Of a stretch of 64,000 bases of DNA, positions 36,717 through 44,255 are shown piece after piece. Made by a program: the position numbers and the translations under genes. The DNA comes from Roseibium sp. (GTDB taxonomy: Bacteria > Pseudomonadota > Alphaproteobacteria > Rhizobiales > Stappiaceae). Position 1 is the stretch's first letter; each line of letters opens with the position of its first letter. The DNA is taken from positions 434,001-498,000 of the forward strand of contig JAEPML010000001.1 in the NCBI GenBank assembly GCA_017643925.1, written 5' to 3'. The notes under the pieces are model-generated. The model did no database searches. It was not told where the DNA came from and saw nothing but the letters and a program-made list of their open reading frames with translations.

Positions 36717-37868
36717 TCAATTGACGATTGCTGACAGGTCCCGAATGAGATCGTCCACATTCAGGTCTTCGCGCACCGAGTAGTCAGGCTTGTTTTCGAA
36801 GGGGCCGACAAACGGTTGCGGATCGACAACATTTCCGGCAACGTCCACGGTCCAGCCGTTCTTGCCGTCGTCACACAGGCTGCCATCAGGAAATTCGACC
36901 GCCAGGGCATAGGCTCCCTTTTTCAGACCCGTGAAGGACTTGTTGGCATAAAGGCCGTAATAACCGTAACCAACCTCGCCAGTGCCGCCGAGCTTTCGTC
37001 CCGAAATGTCGTAGAGCGTCACCCGTCCGCTAGCTGAACAAGGCCGGATGGTGATTTTGACGTCTCCATCCTCTCCCAATCCGAACAGGGCCACGTCAAT
37101 GTCGCCGGGAGGCGCGCTGCCGGAAACGATGACCGCGCCGGATGGTCGATACTCGACAATTCCCTTTGTTGTGGCGAAGACATTGGTGAACTCGCCCGCC
37201 GTCTCTTCATCCGAGGTGAACGGGCCGCTGCGCTGATCGAAGTCGCCGACCGCAATGCCGTCGGCAGAAACGGGTGGCGGGGAGGCCGGTGGAGGGAGCG
37301 CCGCATTGGGCGCAGAGCCCGATGAAGGCGCCGTCGATTGCGGCAATGGCAATGCCGGGACAGGGAGTGCGACGGGCGAAGCCGGCAAAGGGGCCGGCGC
37401 GGACGGTTCCGTTGCAGGTGCAGGCGTTTCCGTCACTTTCGGTTTCACCGCCTCGTAGAGCGCGATAAATCCGTTGGACTGGCTGCCCCCGTTCTGGCAG
37501 ATCCGTCCCAGTTCGGTGACGATCTCGTAGCTTCCGGCCGACAGGCGCGCATTCCAGGTCGTAATTCCCTGACACCAGCTGTGCTGGTACGGATCGCAGT
37601 CGTTACGGGTCAACTCCCCTGACATCAGCGAGCGCCCTCCACTGCGCAATTCGTAGGGAATGCGTTCAACACCTTGTGGCCAGTTGATCCAGGTGCGGAT
37701 CAGGCCGATATCGCGTGCAGAGGAAAAAGAGAAACGGATCGTGTCGGTCAAACCGCAGCTGCCCTTGTTCCAATTGTCGATTATCACCGGTCCGATTTCA
37801 GCTTGTCCGTGAGAGGGCGTCGAAAGAAAGAGCAACGGGACGAAAACAGCGCATATTCGAGTATACAT
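36717..37868 (-). CDS. Exported protein of unknown function, Pro-rich linker, third gene of the operon
   Basis: A 383-residue secreted protein. A signal peptide (residues 1-21, ending S-H-G-Q-A) leads to an N-terminal domain (about 24-135) with paired cysteines (S-C-G-L, N-D-C-D, W-C-Q-G, R-I-C-Q-N). A Pro/Ala/Ser linker spans about 140-205. The C-terminal domain (about 205-345) resembles a bacterial pre-peptidase-like beta-sandwich: G-D-F-D-Q-R, then I-V-S-G-S-A-P-P-G-D-I-D-V-A-L-F-G and G-Y-G-Y-Y-G-L-Y-A-N. The tail is acidic (N-V-D-D-L-I-R-D-L). It starts 3 bases after the stop of the 864-residue gene, with GGGAGG before ATG 37868, so the two are translated from one message. No function is recognised. 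Confidence 0.75.
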   Translation of the reverse strand: MYTRICAVFVPLLFLSTPSHGQAEIGPVIIDNWNKGSCGLTDTIRFSFSSARDIGLIRTWINWPQGVERIPYELRSGGRSLMSGELTRNDCDPYQHSWCQGITTWNARLSAGSYEIVTELGRICQNGGSQSNGFIALYEAVKPKVTETPAPATEPSAPAPLPASPVALPVPALPLPQSTAPSSGSAPNAALPPPASPPPVSADGIAVGDFDQRSGPFTSDEETAGEFTNVFATTKGIVEYRPSGAVIVSGSAPPGDIDVALFGLGEDGDVKITIRPCSASGRVTLYDISGRKLGGTGEVGYGYYGLYANKSFTGLKKGAYALAVEFPDGSLCDDGKNGWTVDVAGNVVDPQPFVGPFENKPDYSVREDLNVDDLIRDLSAIVN

Positions 37869-37871
37869 CCG

Positions 37872-40466
37872 TCAACCTCCCTTCATGGGTCTGCACAGGG
37901 CTTCGGCGACCGTTTTTGCGGCTCCGCAATGTTCGAGCGCCTTGCGGTCTGGAATGAATCTGGAGCGACTGCAGCCCCAACCCTGTCCAACGCAGGGGCC
38001 GTTGGACACGTCCATGCAGCTGTCTGAACCGTCATGCGGCGTGGTCTGAAACCAGACCGACACACTCGAGGTCTTGCCGGAATGAACCCGGCAGATACAG
38101 TTCAACAACTTCGCCTTGGCGTCCTTCTTCAAAAGACGGTTCGCGAGACTGGCCATGCGCGAGGGATTATCGAGTTCCGAGGAAATCCGGGCCAGCAGCG
38201 CATTGGCGACATCTTCACCGATGGCGCAAGGTTCGCTGTTGCCGGCAGGTCCAGGAGATGGTTCGAATGTGGGCTCAGGATTGTTGGAGACGACCCACTC
38301 CGGCGGATCGCTGTCGTGGTCCTCGTCCTGGCGGGTCCCACCGGACGTTTGGGTCTTGGTTGGTTTTTTCGTTTTCGGTTCCGGCTTTTTCGTGACCTTC
38401 GGCTTCTGGGGCTTTTTCTGCTTGTCGTCCTTTTTCTCTTTCTCTTCGTCGTCCTTGGCGTCTGCAGGAAGAACGATGACGTCAATGGTCGCCTTTGCAT
38501 CCTTCTCGAAGCGGAAGGGGGAGCCGGAATCCCAGGTCGCGCTTTCCAGTCGGGCAGATACCTTGAATGTCAGTTCCACGGGATAAGTGCCAGGTTTGTC
38601 GGCCTCAAGATAAGCAACGGTTTCGTCACTCTTGTACACGGACCACAGATGATAGGTGGTTACGATAACGCCATCAGGTGAAACGGGTGCGAGAGCTTTT
38701 TCAATAAGCGGCTTCAGTTTGTTGCGCTGGTCACCACCCGTATTCGCCGTGAGAGTTACCGTAAGCTTTGGATTGTCACCTTTGGGCAGTTTGGCCGGTA
38801 CCGGGCTGTAGGTAAGCAGAAGCGGTGTCTTGAATGCCTTGCCGACCGCGATCTCAAGGCGTTTTCTGGCGAGTTGGCGATGATAGGTCCAGATACGCTT
38901 TATCTTCGGATAGACCTTGCCAATGAGCACCTTGGCCTCTTCCGGATTTCGGGTGCATTCTATGGCGCGTCCCTCGACAATGTTTTTCAGGCTGCGTTCG
39001 TCCTTGGCAAACTTCACGATTTTCCAAATCGGCAGATCGTAATGGGCACAAAAGCCCTCGGATTTGTCGCCGGAGACTCCGCCGAGAAACGCGTTGAGGT
39101 CGACATGCATCACCGCCAGTCCGTGACCGAGATCCTTTGAGCTCTTCATGATCTGAGCGGTAATCAACCCGAGTATGACTGGTGATACGCCCGGAAGCAC
39201 TCCGGCCATTTCGTCGAGGAATGCCTGTTCGACATCATCTCCTTCCAGGGCCTCTTTCGAGAGATAGATAGACAAGCCAAACAGAGCTGCCTTCGCAGCA
39301 ACAGTCTTCCAGGGAACATTGTGTATGAGGCCGTCCAGTTCGGTCGCTTCCTTGCCGAGATCTCGCATGATGTTGTCCATCAAATCCCGTTCCATGGGCA
39401 TCATGTCGTCCCATTTGGAGAGGATCGACGCTTTGTGGAAACCCTGTTTCTGGACTTTGCCGGCCTGTTCCATGAGCTTGGTGAATTCGGCTTCTCTCTT
39501 TGCCAGCAGTTCAGGAATGACCTCGTTTGTTGTCGGATCGCTCACCGCCTCGAACAGCTTGGACAACTTGCCCTCAAGGTTCTTCACTTTCGCAGTCCAG
39601 TTGGGATCGAGGCCTGCACCTGCCAGGTCGGTGCCCTTCAGGATGTCGTTGTTCATCCTTTCCAGGTATTTGGCGATCGTCTTTGGATTGGGGTTGGATG
39701 AACCCAGCTCATGCAGGAGTTTTTCGGACCACTGCCGCGCCGTGTTACCGCTGCCAACAGTGCTGTAAAGGCCAAGCTCTTCGGCGAAATGAGTGAGATC
39801 CACGCCGCCGCTGAAGACCTTTCCGGTTTTCTTGTCGAGATAATACAGCTTGCCGGCGCTGGCTTCGTATCTTTGCCGGAAGGCCTGCGCTCCCTTGCCG
39901 TAGAGCCCTTCGACAAGCTCGAGCGCGGCTTCGTCGCCCGCGGCGGCCTTCTTGGCAAGGTCGTCCATGGTTCCGACGTATCCGAGATTCGGAACTGCGC
40001 CGGACTTGCGGACGGCCTCTAGTGCATCCGCGCTGTTTTCCACGCCATCCATGAGTTGATTAGGTGGATAAAAGTTGGTGTTTTTCAGGATCGTGTTGGG
40101 ATCATGTTCGGTATTGGACAAGGTCATCTTGACCAGTTCCTGAAGGCGGCTCTGGGCCTGCCGCCAGGCCTTTGCCGCACCTTCCGGCCCGAGCTCCTTG
40201 AACTTTTCCTTGCTCAGCACCATTCGCAGGTCGTGATCGGATTTTCCGGGGATGTATTTCTTATTCTTGCTGATCCAGGACCCGACCCCCGCGATATCAA
40301 TCCCGGTTTCCTGGACAACCTGGGAAACAAGATCCTGCATGATGTCGTTGAGGGGCCGTGCCGCATTGGTCTCCTGGGCCAGGGGGGCGCCAGCCGAAAG
40401 GAAGACGATCACGATCGCCGAGCCAAGAGAGCGTGCCCGCACCCCCATGTTCTTGTTACAGGTCAT
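37872..40466 (-). CDS. Large exported protein of unknown function, second gene of the operon
   Basis: An 864-residue protein I do not recognise. Residues 1-34 are a signal peptide (A-I-V-I-V-F-L-S-A-G-A-P-L-A-Q). Residues 35-380 are mostly helical and charged. A weakly hydrophobic patch occurs at about 395-450 (L-F-G-L-S-I-Y-L and V-S-P-V-I-L-G-L-I-T). A beta-rich domain around 590-660 includes K-L-T-V-T-L-T-A-N-T-G-G and Y-P-V-E-L-T-F-K-V. A Lys/Glu/Asp/Thr/Pro-rich low-complexity linker covers about 665-720. The last about 110 residues hold eight or so cysteines (L-N-C-I-C-R, G-W-G-C-S-R), probably disulfide-bonded. Its ATG overlaps the stop of the broken first gene (ATGA at 40463-40466), showing translational coupling, and the next gene begins 3 bases after its stop. 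No catalytic motif seen. Confidence 0.75.
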   Translation of the reverse strand: MTCNKNMGVRARSLGSAIVIVFLSAGAPLAQETNAARPLNDIMQDLVSQVVQETGIDIAGVGSWISKNKKYIPGKSDHDLRMVLSKEKFKELGPEGAAKAWRQAQSRLQELVKMTLSNTEHDPNTILKNTNFYPPNQLMDGVENSADALEAVRKSGAVPNLGYVGTMDDLAKKAAAGDEAALELVEGLYGKGAQAFRQRYEASAGKLYYLDKKTGKVFSGGVDLTHFAEELGLYSTVGSGNTARQWSEKLLHELGSSNPNPKTIAKYLERMNNDILKGTDLAGAGLDPNWTAKVKNLEGKLSKLFEAVSDPTTNEVIPELLAKREAEFTKLMEQAGKVQKQGFHKASILSKWDDMMPMERDLMDNIMRDLGKEATELDGLIHNVPWKTVAAKAALFGLSIYLSKEALEGDDVEQAFLDEMAGVLPGVSPVILGLITAQIMKSSKDLGHGLAVMHVDLNAFLGGVSGDKSEGFCAHYDLPIWKIVKFAKDERSLKNIVEGRAIECTRNPEEAKVLIGKVYPKIKRIWTYHRQLARKRLEIAVGKAFKTPLLLTYSPVPAKLPKGDNPKLTVTLTANTGGDQRNKLKPLIEKALAPVSPDGVIVTTYHLWSVYKSDETVAYLEADKPGTYPVELTFKVSARLESATWDSGSPFRFEKDAKATIDVIVLPADAKDDEEKEKKDDKQKKPQKPKVTKKPEPKTKKPTKTQTSGGTRQDEDHDSDPPEWVVSNNPEPTFEPSPGPAGNSEPCAIGEDVANALLARISSELDNPSRMASLANRLLKKDAKAKLLNCICRVHSGKTSSVSVWFQTTPHDGSDSCMDVSNGPCVGQGWGCSRSRFIPDRKALEHCGAAKTVAEALCRPMKGG

Positions 40467-41104
40467 TGGGACGCCTCCTTGCGTGCGGCGATTTCAGCCA
40501 GGAGCGCATCACGCAGGTCCGTGGTGACGGACACGTCCTCGGTAAGCCCGGTGTCGCGTTGAAACGCCCTGATTGCTTCCTGGGTTTTCTGCGTCACCTG
40601 CCCATCCGGAATCCCGACATCGTAACCCATCACGGACAGCAGGGACTGAACCGTGATCACCAGATCAATGCCGGGTTCCGGAGCCGTAACGACAACACCA
40701 TCCGGGGATGTGTTGCTGCTCTCGGGAACGGCTACCAACGGAGCGGCAACCGAAAACGCGACGGCGGCGAGTTCCAGGTCGTTGCCTGTTTCATTCAGCC
40801 GGATCTCATAGTCGCCCGCTTCGTCGGGAGCCACGAAGTTCAACTGGCCGGTTTCGGTCCCCGATAGCGTTTCGCGGGAAACCGCGTGAAGCAGGTTCCT
40901 GTTGGCGCTGCCATGCGCTGTCCGCGCCGGAACAATCCCGATCCAGCTGTCCGGGCGGTAGTCAGCCGAGGCCGTGAAGGAGACTTCGATCGTGGCACCC
41001 GGTTCAAAAACCGTTTCCTGGAGTGTCAGTGACGCCGCGCTTCGGTCCAGTTCGACCTTGAAACTGATGCGCGCGAGTTCGGCATCAAGATCCGGATCGC
41101 TCAA
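40463..41104 (-). CDS. C-terminal fragment: beta-sandwich domain 3 and peptidoglycan-binding domain
   Basis: A 213-residue frame from TTG 41104; the same frame is open a little further upstream into the end of domain 2 (E-G-S-Y-E-I-R-L). Domain 3 runs from L-T-L-Q-E-T-V-F-E-P-G to A-G-D-Y-E-I-R-L-N. Residues about 150-205 are a PG_binding_1 domain (Q-S-L-L-S-V-M-G-Y-D-V-G and T-Q-E-A-I-R-A-F-Q-R). The fragment has no signal peptide, so alone it could not reach the wall. Its stop overlaps the start of the 864-residue gene. Confidence 0.55.
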   Translation of the reverse strand: MSDPDLDAELARISFKVELDRSAASLTLQETVFEPGATIEVSFTASADYRPDSWIGIVPARTAHGSANRNLLHAVSRETLSGTETGQLNFVAPDEAGDYEIRLNETGNDLELAAVAFSVAAPLVAVPESSNTSPDGVVVTAPEPGIDLVITVQSLLSVMGYDVGIPDGQVTQKTQEAIRAFQRDTGLTEDVSVTTDLRDALLAEIAARKEASQ

Positions 41105-42150
41105 CCGGATTTCATAGCTGCCCTCGCGGCTGGGAACCGGAAAGCGAATGGCCCCCCATTTCCACCGATGGCCTTGCGCACGAAAACGGTCTCGGCATTT
41201 GCCGTATCACTTCCGCCGGAGGCGCCTTCCGGAAACAGTCCGAGCCAGGCACCCGGGCCCATGTCGCCAGGATCGGCAATCGATACTTCAATCGTTCCGT
41301 CCGGAGCTGCTGTCGCAGGGGTAACCTGCAACTCGGCCATCGAGTGCGCTTCTTGAGGTGGCGTTTCCGGCGCAGGCGCAGCTTTTGGGGCGGACTGAGC
41401 CAGCGGGGCGCCGGAAAGCGCGTTGCTTCGGTAAACCTGAAAGTCCGGTTGCTCACGCATGTCACTGCAAGAGTTCTGCAGCCAGCACTCGTTCGGCCAT
41501 AGACCTTGCGGCAGACCATGCATGACGATCGAAGCCTTTTTTGTTTCCGCGATCGCCAGGCAGGCCTTCAGGTCATGTTCTCCGAAAAAACAGCCCTGCA
41601 GCCGGCACTTTGCCTCATCGCGCCAGGCATCCGGGTAAGTGGCCGTTCCGAAACAGGCAAGGGTGCCCATGAGTTCGTAGTCCGGTTCGGGCGGCGTTAA
41701 TCCGGCAGATGGAGCCGGGTCGGCGCTTTCTGTCGGTTGAGCACCCTCGACCGTCACCTTCACGGCGTCGGCAATGGCATAGCCTCCATCTGGCCAGTTC
41801 AGATAAAGACGCACCTCGTAGCGCCCTGCCGGGAGTTCCTTGAAGCGGTGACTGCCCGCCAGGGTGCCTTCTTCGAGCATTGCGAGGTCGAAATACTGTT
41901 CGGCAGTGTGGTCTTCTGCGGCCACGGCCAACCAATTGATCCCCGGCTCCGGCAGGCCGGAAAACCGTGCTTCGATCTGGCTTCCCTCAGATACTTGTGA
42001 CTGTGTGACTGAAATCTGCGGTTTGGCGGATGTCGGAGTCGATGCCGATTGGGAGACCGAGCTCGTTTGTTGTTCGAGCTGTTTGATTTCTCCACCAGCG
42101 CCCTGACTTGAGGACGGTTGGTCGGCGGGCTGCTGTGACTTCGCGAGTTC
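41101..42150 (-). CDS. Middle fragment: linker and beta-sandwich domains 1 and 2
   Basis: Open from the codon after the amber stop to a premature TGA at 41101-41103. The only listed start inside it is TTG 41931, in mid-domain and without a ribosome binding site. The continuous reading starts in a Gln/Ser/Thr linker, then beta-sandwich domain 1 (I-S-V-T-Q-S-Q-V-S-E-G-S-Q-I-E to Y-E-V-R-L-Y-L-N-W), a Cys-rich insert (C-F-G, C-R-L-Q-G-C-F-F-G, C-L-A-I, N-E-C-W-L-Q-N-S-C), and most of domain 2. The last 16 or so codons after the G6 tract are out of frame. Translation without readthrough is unlikely. Confidence 0.55.
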   Translation of the reverse strand, partial: ELAKSQQPADQPSSSQGAGGEIKQLEQQTSSVSQSASTPTSAKPQISVTQSQVSEGSQIEARFSGLPEPGINWLAVAAEDHTAEQYFDLAMLEEGTLAGSHRFKELPAGRYEVRLYLNWPDGGYAIADAVKVTVEGAQPTESADPAPSAGLTPPEPDYELMGTLACFGTATYPDAWRDEAKCRLQGCFFGEHDLKACLAIAETKKASIVMHGLPQGLWPNECWLQNSCSDMREQPDFQVYRSNALSGAPLAQSAPKAAPAPETPPQEAHSMAELQVTPATAAPDGTIEVSIADPGDMGPGAWLGLFPEGASGGSDTANAETVFVRKAIGGNGGPFAFRFPAARAAMKSG

Positions 42151-43026
42151 CTAGATTGCCTGTGACAAACCTCCGGCCGCAGCTTCTGCAATCAGTTCTT
42201 CCGCATGACCATCATAGGCTTCGGCAGTGAGGCCCATCTGGATCATACGGCCAAGAACATAGAGGGCCCTGACGTCGCCTGCATCTGCGGCCAGGGAAAT
42301 CAGGGACGACGCTTCGTCTTCGTAAAGCGTGTGTTCGGGCAGGTCGATCAACGCCAGACCGAGCACAATGACCGCCGTTGCGTCCAGAGATTCGGCCCGG
42401 CTTCGAAGGTCGGCAAGGTTTCCGGCGGGAACAGGAACTCCAACAGCGTCCGCCAATCTTTTCACCCGGCGAGACGCAATGACCTTTACATCGGTTGTGC
42501 CACCTGATTGGGCCAACTGGACGTTTTCCGCATAGCATTGTTCCAACCGGTCGATCGCCTTGCGACTTCCGCGCAAGGAAACGCTGAGTTTCCGGATACC
42601 GTCCACATCAACGCGCAGCCGGCCACCACTCGCAATCTCGTCAAGCGCTCTCTGTACCTGGTTTTCGGGAATAAGGATGCGCAGTAGTTCGTTCGTGGCG
42701 CCGATACCTTGGGCACGTAGCGTCCAGCTGTTGTCGACCCTAGTAAAGGTCTTGTAGGTCGCATTCTCTTGAAACGGGGCCGAGGTGTCATATACGGTCA
42801 AGGCATAACCCACTGAGGGAGCCCGCAGCATCATCAGGTATTTTCTGTTGTTTCCCAGCCTGCCGACCAGACAGTAGGCGAAACTTCCATTCTCGAAATA
42901 GGACGCTCCTTCCCAGAAGCCAACCTTGAACTCGGTTTGAACTTCGGCGCTGAGCACTTCCTTTTGCCAGGGCAGAAAAAAGCAGACGACCGCACAGAAA
43001 ATGACAAGGCAAAGGCGTCCGAACAT
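42151..43026 (-). CDS. N-terminal fragment: exported protein with Sel1-type repeat
   Basis: A 291-residue open frame with its own good start (AAGGGGGAA before ATG 43026) and a signal peptide (residues 1-27, ending V-L-S-A). Residues 28-165 form a beta-rich domain (F-K-V-G-F-W-E-G-A-S-Y, L-R-V-D-V-D-G-I-R-K-L-S-V-S-L) that loosely resembles the IalB-type invasion-associated fold. Residues about 205-290 fit Sel1/TPR-like helices (L-I-S-L-A-A-D-A-G-D-V-R-A-L-Y-V-L-G-R-M). It ends at amber 42151-42153. As the only fragment with a clean ribosome binding site it could still be made as a truncated, secreted protein. Confidence 0.7.
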   Translation of the reverse strand: MFGRLCLVIFCAVVCFFLPWQKEVLSAEVQTEFKVGFWEGASYFENGSFAYCLVGRLGNNRKYLMMLRAPSVGYALTVYDTSAPFQENATYKTFTRVDNSWTLRAQGIGATNELLRILIPENQVQRALDEIASGGRLRVDVDGIRKLSVSLRGSRKAIDRLEQCYAENVQLAQSGGTTDVKVIASRRVKRLADAVGVPVPAGNLADLRSRAESLDATAVIVLGLALIDLPEHTLYEDEASSLISLAADAGDVRALYVLGRMIQMGLTAEAYDGHAEELIAEAAAGGLSQAI

Positions 43027-43287
43027 CGCATTCCCCCTTGATGCGCTCTGCCTCCAGCCGTTGGAAGGGCGAGGTATCGACCCGGCTCGCTCGGCGGGGT
43101 CACGCGTTTTGTTGGGTTAGTCGGTTAATGAATAGAAACAATCACTTCGAACTCGGTCAATTGGTAGAAATACGCTAATTCAACCTATGGTGTTGTTGAT
43201 GGTAGTAGTTTCCCTTTATCGTCTACAAAGTCGATTGTTGTTATCTTTATGCCATCAGTTTCGGTGGGAATTCCGGAAGGGGAGACC

Positions 43288-43884
43288 ATGGCAAGTCTTT
43301 GCCGATTACACGGAGGAGCCGTCAGGTGTCTTTCGATTGCTGCTTTTGGTGCCGCGATTGCCTTTGCTCTTGGGTCTTATGCAACGGCGCAGCAAAACGA
43401 TCCCGACAGAAAATGTGCCGTTCTGGTTTTCGAGGGGCAGTTTGGGCACATTGAAGTCTGTGTTTCCTCCATTCTGCCGGCGCAGAAGGGCAACCGCTAC
43501 GGACCGGAGCAGGTTTTCGACGGCGACCCGGCCACGGCCTGGGTTGAAGGGGCCCCGGAAGATGGACGCGGTCAATGGATCGAATATCTGTTCGAATGGC
43601 CGATGCGGCTGCAGAGCTTCGAAATTCTTGCTGGCTACGCCAAAAGCAGGAAGGCTCATCAGAACAACGCACGGCCCAAGGATGTTCGTGTGTTCGCCGA
43701 TGGAGAGTTCATAGAAACAATTCGGCTTGAAGACACGATGTCGGTCCAGCGGGTCACCTTGAGCGAACCTGTCGAAGCAGAGTTCTTCAGGCTGGAGATT
43801 GCCTCAAGCTACCGTGGAAACAAGTGGCAGGATCTCGCTGTGTCCGAGTTCTATGTCGACCTGGAAGAGCTGAATTACCAGTAA
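43288..43884 (+). CDS. Exported protein with discoidin-like (F5/8 type C-like) domain
   Basis: A 198-residue secreted protein. The signal peptide covers about residues 1-35 (A-A-F-G-A-A-I-A-F-A-L-G-S-Y-A-T-A-Q). The body is a jelly-roll of the type seen in NADase-type glycan-binding or discoidin domains: Y-G-P-E-Q-V-F-D-G-D-P-A-T-A-W-V-E-G near 75-92, then G-Q-W-I-E-Y-L-F, F-E-I-L-A-G-Y-A and F-F-R-L-E-I. Such domains bind sugars. ATG 43288 has GGGGAG upstream and is preferred over ATG 43249. It is divergent from the broken operon (261-base gap), so the two may share control. Confidence 0.75.
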   Translation: MASLCRLHGGAVRCLSIAAFGAAIAFALGSYATAQQNDPDRKCAVLVFEGQFGHIEVCVSSILPAQKGNRYGPEQVFDGDPATAWVEGAPEDGRGQWIEYLFEWPMRLQSFEILAGYAKSRKAHQNNARPKDVRVFADGEFIETIRLEDTMSVQRVTLSEPVEAEFFRLEIASSYRGNKWQDLAVSEFYVDLEELNYQ

Positions 43885-43943
43885 GCGCCAAGCCTGGCGC
43901 GTGGGCAAAGCCTGCATTCGCCACATTGAGTGGGCACTGCCGT

Positions 43944-44255
43944 TCAGTCGCCACCGCCGCCATCACCGCCGCCATCGAAATCACCACTGTCGCCGGAGTG
44001 ATCCATCGCCATCCAGTGGGCCATGCCCTTTGCCGTTGCCTGTTCGGCATCGAACCGCTGCCGTCTGCGACGGCTCTTGAAAACGGCAAACAACATGAGG
44101 ATGCCAATGAACAAGAGCATGCCACCGATGAAAAGCGCGGCACCTGCATCCTCGCTCATGCCTTCGGACGCATAAACTTCAAAAAAGGCAACCATCACTG
44201 CTCCTCCGGAGAGAAGGAACCCGCAGGTCAAGATAAGTCCAAGAAGAAATCGCAT
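43944..44255 (-). CDS. Small membrane protein with Gly/Asp-rich tail
   Basis: A 103-residue protein with two membrane helices (about 5-25 and 38-61), a basic stretch R-R-R-R-Q-R-F and a C-terminal tail of G, D and S ending G-G-G-G-D. Good ribosome binding site GGGAGG before ATG 44255. I do not recognise a family. The tail recalls the Gly-rich end of the DUF2207 protein elsewhere in the window, but without sequence homology beyond composition. Confidence 0.65.
   Translation of the reverse strand: MRFLLGLILTCGFLLSGGAVMVAFFEVYASEGMSEDAGAALFIGGMLLFIGILMLFAVFKSRRRRQRFDAEQATAKGMAHWMAMDHSGDSGDFDGGGDGGGGD

What the first reader, a model, noticed from the sequence alone, without database searches (positions are those of the whole stretch)
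40463..43026. One large envelope-protein gene broken twice: an in-frame amber codon and a G6-tract frameshift
Seen directly: minus-strand frames 42151-43026 and 41101-42150 are the same frame, separated only by TAG 42151-42153 (S-Q-A-I-stop-E-L-A-K, which a CAG codon would repair). At the G6 tract 41152-41157 one extra G joins the second frame to the third as G-G-A-I-R-F-P-V, restoring the domain. Two independent lesions in the first gene of an otherwise intact, overlapping operon suggest recent loss of function, strain variation or phase variation at the G tract.
Basis: partly seen in the sequence, partly recalled or inferred. Interest (0 to 1): 0.8.

Follow-up and report, generated by a model that had tools for sequence, protein, structure and literature searches.

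The report
Twice-interrupted envelope gene, probably decaying
One gene for a large, probably secreted, cell-wall-binding protein is interrupted by a stop codon and a reading-frame slip, while two relatives of the same genus carry it whole, so this looks like ordinary gene decay (or, less likely, a sequencing error) rather than a new mechanism.

Summary
On the minus strand an amber codon (42151-42153) separates two pieces in one frame, and the coding frame changes at a G6 tract (41152-41157). A codon-statistics scan not told about the tract placed the switch at about 41156. An intact copy of the same domain inside piece 3 aligns with piece 2 before the tract and with piece 3 after it, but not with piece 2's tail. 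By the piece-2 profile, 3 of 45 genus genomes have the gene: this one and two with continuous frames of 995 and 1012 codons, which match all three pieces in order. So this is one gene, interrupted twice.

It encodes a probably periplasmic, modular protein ending in a peptidoglycan-binding domain. It belongs to a sporadic gene cluster shared with the same two genomes. The two downstream genes are open, with their own Shine-Dalgarno sequences.

Best explanation: recent pseudogenisation. Phase variation is not supported: six-base G/C runs are common here, and slippage would leave the stop. No CUA-anticodon tRNA is among 42 called. Assembly error at the tract cannot be excluded without reads. Interest is low.

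The parts
42154..43026 (-). Piece 1: 291 codons, ATG start; hydrophobic N-terminus that reads like a signal peptide (by eye, no predictor run), N-terminal domain and Sel1-like region
   Evidence: 33% identical to the continuous homologues in G034 and G003; GGGGG 7-11 nt before the ATG
42151..42153 (-). In-frame amber codon (first interruption)
   Evidence: the homologues run through this region without a stop
41104..42150 (-). Piece 2: linker, domain A, Cys-rich domain, first part of domain B, then an out-of-frame tail after the tract
41152..41157 (-). G6 tract where the coding frame changes (second interruption)
   Evidence: switch placed at about 41156 by coding statistics; internal-repeat and L011 alignments
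40463..41155 (-). Piece 3: rest of domain B, intact domain C, PG_binding_1 domain (PF01471), stop
   Evidence: PF01471 E 1.4e-9; PDB sequence hits to two lytic enzymes over the wall-binding part, E 0.0014 each; alignment to L011 and to the intact copy
37872..40466 (-). Downstream gene, 864 aa, no family found; own AGGAGG; overlaps piece 3 by 4 nt
36717..37868 (-). Downstream gene, 383 aa; C-terminal module (about residues 213-361) shared with a 533/535-codon frame at the homologous loci
43249..43884 (+). Divergent gene, NADase-type discoidin (glycan-binding) domain protein (PF25302 / NF047619)
   Evidence: its two nearest relatives lie beside the homologous gene in G003 and G034
43944..44255 (-). 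Small 103-aa protein, also present at the homologous loci (62-63% over 68-69 residues)

Best explanation
This is one gene for a large modular, probably periplasmic protein: N-terminal domain, Sel1-like region, domain A, a Cys-rich domain, two similar domains B and C, and a peptidoglycan-binding domain. It is the first gene of a minus-strand run in an accessory envelope cluster. In this genome it has been interrupted twice, by an amber codon and by a frame slip at a G6 tract, and most likely no longer makes the full protein. Ribosomes would release a 291-residue N-terminal fragment without the wall-binding end. The downstream genes have their own ribosome binding sites and may still be expressed. 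Shown: the interruptions, the continuity of the homologues, the frame change at the tract, the shared gene cluster. Inferred: secretion, wall attachment, loss of function, recency.
For: Continuous 995- and 1012-codon frames in two same-genus genomes match pieces 1, 2 and 3 in order, and these are the only other genomes of 45 in the genus that match the piece-2 profile. The part of piece 2 before the tract matches an intact copy of the domain inside piece 3 (score 79, 0 of 2000 shuffles as high). The head of piece 3 matches the next part of that copy (49, 0 of 2000). The out-of-frame tail of piece 2 does not (13, 1901 of 2000). The continuous 1153-codon homologue L011 aligns with residues 1-139 of piece 3 (score 160, 0 of 1000), starting where the alignment of the piece-2 part ends. 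Coding statistics. The first possible starts of pieces 2 and 3 fall inside domains.
Against: The piece-2 part against L011 alone is weak (score 35; 90 of 1000 shuffles as high), and the last 45 residues of piece 1 do not match L011 (115 of 300). The linker after the amber codon has no homologue support. The remaining frames are long and gene-like, so one or both interruptions could be absent in the living strain (sequence error or a laboratory mutation). The assembly is a 130-contig draft and no reads were seen. No transcript or protein data.
Confidence: 0.75

Rival explanations
1. Sequencing or assembly error: at least the G6 tract length, possibly both interruptions, are wrong in this draft and the gene is whole in the organism.
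For: Homopolymer runs are classic error sites (general knowledge); draft of 130 contigs; one N in the sampled 364 kb; the pieces are otherwise open and gene-like.
Against: The sampled 364 kb do not look riddled with such errors: of 18 raw frame-switch hits only this one has a run of six in its printed 50-nt junction (I judged the other 17 only by their printed starts, stops and lengths). An error would also have to produce an unrelated amber codon 1 kb away.
Confidence: 0.17
2. Programmed recoding: amber read-through and ribosomal (or transcriptional) slippage at the tract make a little full-length protein.
For: Both interruptions leave the downstream frame open and, apart from the linker, coding-like.
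Against: The two nearest homologues are continuous and need neither event. Two recoding events in series would give very little product (general knowledge). None of the 42 tRNAs called by ARAGORN has a CUA anticodon, though two further Rfam matches in L074 were not called and a draft may lack some tRNA genes. TAG looks like an ordinary stop: it ends 46 of 199 training segments, one of which runs off the end.
Confidence: 0.03
3. Phase variation at the G tract switches the protein on and off.
For: A G tract inside the coding sequence at the frame change.
Against: Six bases is an ordinary run length here (16 G6 and 18 C6 in 364 kb). The amber codon would still stop translation after any tract change.
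Confidence: 0.02
4. Piece 1 is by itself a finished, functional secreted protein and only the rest is dead (compatible with the best explanation, so the two odds overlap).
For: The sequence after the amber codon is an unconserved linker; a frame resembling only this piece occurs alone in G032 (383 codons, 21% identity, E 0.001).
Against: The two nearest homologues are continuous, and by eye a further repeat follows at this place in both.
Confidence: 0.1

Closest known systems
Continuous homologues in G034 and G003 (same genus, unnamed)
   Same: Order of parts from the N-terminus through domain A and the Cys-rich domain to PG_binding_1; neighbours include the NADase-type discoidin protein, the small protein and the shared C-terminal module of the 383-aa gene
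   Different: Uninterrupted; no counterpart of domains B and C between the Cys-rich domain and PG_binding_1; extra residues after the Sel1-like region and a longer C-terminus
L011, 1153-codon frame of an alphaproteobacterial MAG (JAADIC010000101.1; frame starts at the contig end)
   Same: Sel1 repeats (PF08238, whole-protein E 1.2e-24), domains matching piece 3 residues 1-139 and domain A of piece 2
   Different: Domain order differs (B-C before A); no PG_binding_1 hit
Lineage-specific decay of Campylobacter capC/capD autotransporter genes (PMC7168839; start of abstract, passages)
   Same: Surface-protein genes inactivated by stops and frameshifts, some with G tracts nearby, judged for capC to be pseudogene formation rather than phase variation
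   Different: Unrelated proteins and organism; the capC tract lies upstream of the gene, not inside it; decay shown there across many genomes

Membership tests
Bacterial pseudogene (recently interrupted gene) | Homologues elsewhere are uninterrupted | tested here: met
   2 of 2 other genus genomes that match the piece-2 profile are continuous; L011 and L016 are continuous over the parts they share
Bacterial pseudogene (recently interrupted gene) | Pieces lack starts that would make them separate genes | tested here: met
   First possible starts are TTG codons inside domains; weak GGGGA before the piece-2 TTG, no well-placed Shine-Dalgarno before the piece-3 TTG
Bacterial pseudogene (recently interrupted gene) | Interruptions are real in the organism and the product is lost | not testable with these tools
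   No reads, second strain, transcripts or proteome
Phase-variable gene (homopolymer contingency locus) | A long tract whose length change alone restores the protein | tested here: not met
   G6 only, a common run length; the amber codon remains in the same gene
Programmed stop read-through or frameshift | Site conserved in homologues | tested here: not met
   The two nearest homologues are continuous
Peptidoglycan-binding protein (PF01471) | PG_binding_1 domain above the curated cut-off | tested here: met
   38.4 bits against a cut-off of 23, but only in piece 3, beyond both interruptions
Sel1-like repeat protein (PF08238) | Sel1 repeats above cut-off | tested here: not met
   No hit in piece 1; hits in homologues L011 and L016, so only 'Sel1-like' by relatedness and by eye

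The most novel reading that the evidence does not exclude
The gene is still decoded through both sites at a low level, so that a mostly unanchored 291-residue secreted fragment and a rare wall-bound full-length form are made from one transcript.
Probability: 0.03. Interest if true: 0.6.

Novelty: new member of a known kind. Interest (0 to 1): 0.15.

Why it matters
It is a clear example of an accessory envelope gene that seems caught early in decay. It also exposes a small, sporadic gene cluster without named function (modular wall-binding protein, NADase-type glycan-binding protein, further large proteins), with counterparts in 2 of 44 other genomes of the genus. Annotators should not list the pieces as three separate genes.

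Tried and rejected
Rejected: three separate genes (first possible starts inside domains); phase variation; amber suppression; a defence system (PADLOC: 0 families at E 0.01 for 7 proteins).

Led nowhere: the first genome-contig scan with piece 1 found no relative among 25 candidate stretches. Plasmid searches with the 864-aa protein and with the G034 homologue found nothing. A same-frame-stop census by codon log-odds was too unspecific: 410 pairs, over 100 with both flanks positive, and the target pair not among those. Promoter and terminator scans were within one standard deviation of shuffles. Paper searches: none for 'NADase-type glycan-binding' or 'NAD glycohydrolase translocation'; two off-topic papers for pseudogene, homopolymer and sequencing-error terms; one for poly-G phase variation and two for Sel1 and wall binding, of which one each was looked into by passages. 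The structure job on piece 2 with its homologues was accepted but never finished, so no fold was seen or compared; 'domain' names A, B and C rest on sequence alone.

Weak hits not used as homologues: G016 (71 residues, E 8.1e-5) was not recovered by the later blastp; L012 and L015 share only the Cys-rich domain and L013 only a domain-A-type region. Domain A against C, and against the piece-2 part of B, was not above shuffles (174 and 839 of 2000).

Full report
Observation. On the minus strand, piece 1 (43026-42154, 291 codons) and piece 2 (42150-41104, 349 codons) share one frame and are separated only by TAG 42151-42153. Piece 3 (41155-40466) is in another frame, and the change coincides with the G6 run at 41152-41157.

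Is the frame change real coding signal? I trained a 4th-order three-periodic model on 198 long open segments from 364 kb of the same contig, with the target operon left out. Piece 1 scores +0.145 nats per codon, piece 2 up to the tract +0.088, and piece 3 +0.247. In the 48 nt after the tract, piece 2's own frame scores -0.198 while the frame of piece 3 scores +0.167. The first 180 nt after the amber codon score -0.14 in frame, a result that gives no support there, although the other two frames are lower still. A scan for same-strand frame switches chose about 41156 without being told about the tract (8.3 nats). It gave 18 raw hits over 364 kb. By their printed starts, stops and lengths several of the other 17 look like ordinary overlaps or short shadow frames, but I did not resolve each. 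None of those 17 printed 50-nt junctions holds a run of six; two hold a run of five (read by eye).

Protein evidence. The protein contains two similar neighbouring domains, B and C. Domain C lies wholly in piece 3. The part of piece 2 before the tract aligns ungapped with residues 2-60 of C (score 79, 0 of 2000 shuffles as high). The first 19 residues of piece 3, of which 17 lie upstream of its first possible start codon, align with residues 64-82 (score 49, 0 of 2000). The tail of piece 2 after the tract does not align (13, 1901 of 2000). In L011, a single 1153-codon frame from an alphaproteobacterial MAG, residues 1-139 of piece 3 align with score 160 (0 of 1000), beginning where the alignment of the piece-2 part ends; that latter alignment is weak on its own (35, 90 of 1000 shuffles as high).

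Homologues. Among the 45 genus genomes that searched (own included), 3 match the piece-2 profile: this genome, G034 and G003. The latter two have continuous frames of 995 and 1012 codons. By blastp, piece 1 (33%), piece 2 (35-37%) and the PG_binding_1 part of piece 3 (41-46%) align in order to both. With piece 1 as query, 5 of 61 relatives (own included) matched: the same three, and weakly G016 and G032. In 397 genomes drawn from the order, 3 matched: own, G048 with the Cys-rich domain only, and G130 with a continuous frame of about 830 codons sharing N-terminal and domain-A regions; G034 and G003 are not among the matches listed there, so they were presumably not in the draw. In G032 a 383-codon frame resembles only the N-terminal piece (21%, E 0.001); this is the one hint that this part can stand alone. 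A genome-contig scan gave three more relatives of parts of the protein, L011-L013.

Amber codon. The 45 residues of piece 1 before it match the G034 and G003 proteins well (108 and 106, 0 of 300 shuffles each) but not L011 (30, 115 of 300). The first 46 residues of piece 2 match none of the three (248, 238 and 80 of 300 shuffles as high). Continuity across the amber codon therefore rests on the unchanged frame, on domain A following in that frame, on the absence of an ATG, GTG or TTG in the frame before 41931, and on the continuous homologues. TAG looks like a normal stop here (46 of 199 training segments, one of which runs off the end). Of 44 Rfam tRNA matches in the genome, ARAGORN called 42, none with a CUA anticodon; two in L074 were not called, and a draft may lack some tRNA genes.

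Separate genes? The first possible starts of pieces 2 and 3 are TTG at 41931 and 41104, both inside domains. A GGGGA lies 9-13 nt before the first of these and a GAGG 18-21 nt before the second. By contrast the 864-aa and 383-aa genes downstream have AGGAGG and GGAGG ending 8 nt before their ATGs. So the downstream genes can probably be translated independently. A polar effect through untranslated RNA is possible but untested.

Setting. The cluster lies between btaA/btaB-like genes and a tripartite-tricarboxylate-type transport cluster (both names recalled, from no call). The btaB-like protein has a match in 45 of 45 genus genomes, the best one 61-79% identical in the other 44. The tctA-like protein also has a match in all 45, but one of about 90% in only 3 of the other 44. 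In G034 and G003 the homologous gene lies far from btaB, but is accompanied by relatives of the NADase-type discoidin protein (52-54%), the small 103-aa protein (62-63%) and the C-terminal module of the 383-aa protein (about 38%). The discoidin protein's domain is commoner (matches in 20 of 45 genus genomes); the 383-aa protein matched 3 of 87 family genomes, the same three. Six stretches of 14-15 kb around btaB or the transport genes in G035, G033, G034, G003, G032 and G012 showed none of the cluster genes at E 1e-8. The 864-aa protein matched only its own genome among 61 and nothing in 72,556 plasmid records.

What it probably does. Only the wall-binding domain has a named family (PF01471; also two lytic enzymes of the PDB at E 0.0014). 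The rest is inferred: a secreted, modular, wall-attached binding or scaffold protein that works with a glycan-binding partner. In this genome the wall-binding end lies beyond both interruptions, so a released fragment would be unanchored. Sel1-like repeat proteins in alphaproteobacterial envelope biology are known (RgsF and ExoR in Sinorhizobium, PMC7327166, passages seen), but no membership in those systems is claimed.

Verdict. One gene, two interruptions, most likely recent pseudogenisation. A sequencing error at the tract is the main rival, and only reads or other strains can decide. Phase variation and recoding are unlikely. The case for decay rather than switching resembles that made for Campylobacter capC genes (PMC7168839, start of abstract and passages).

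Noticed in passing
window 36717-44255: A sporadic gene cluster with NADase-type discoidin protein, small 103-aa protein, modular wall-binding protein and 383-aa protein; counterparts sit together in 2 of 44 other genus genomes at a different chromosomal place.
   Followed up: partly
window 37872-40466: 864-aa protein without a Pfam match at E 0.1 or NCBIfam match at E 0.01, and without a homologue in 60 relatives or in the plasmid collection.
   Followed up: partly
window 41416-41679; L012 7125-8546; L015 526-1767: A Cys-rich domain of about 85 residues shared by distant bacteria, in tandem in L012; Pfam gave only a sub-threshold DUF6371 hit in the window copy.
   Followed up: no
window 41749-42021 (A), 40748-41340 (B, C); L011, L013: Modular domains in different order among homologues: B-C before A in L011, two A-type copies in L013, where Pfam calls them partly PPC. 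B and C are clearly similar; A to B or C is not above shuffles.
   Followed up: partly
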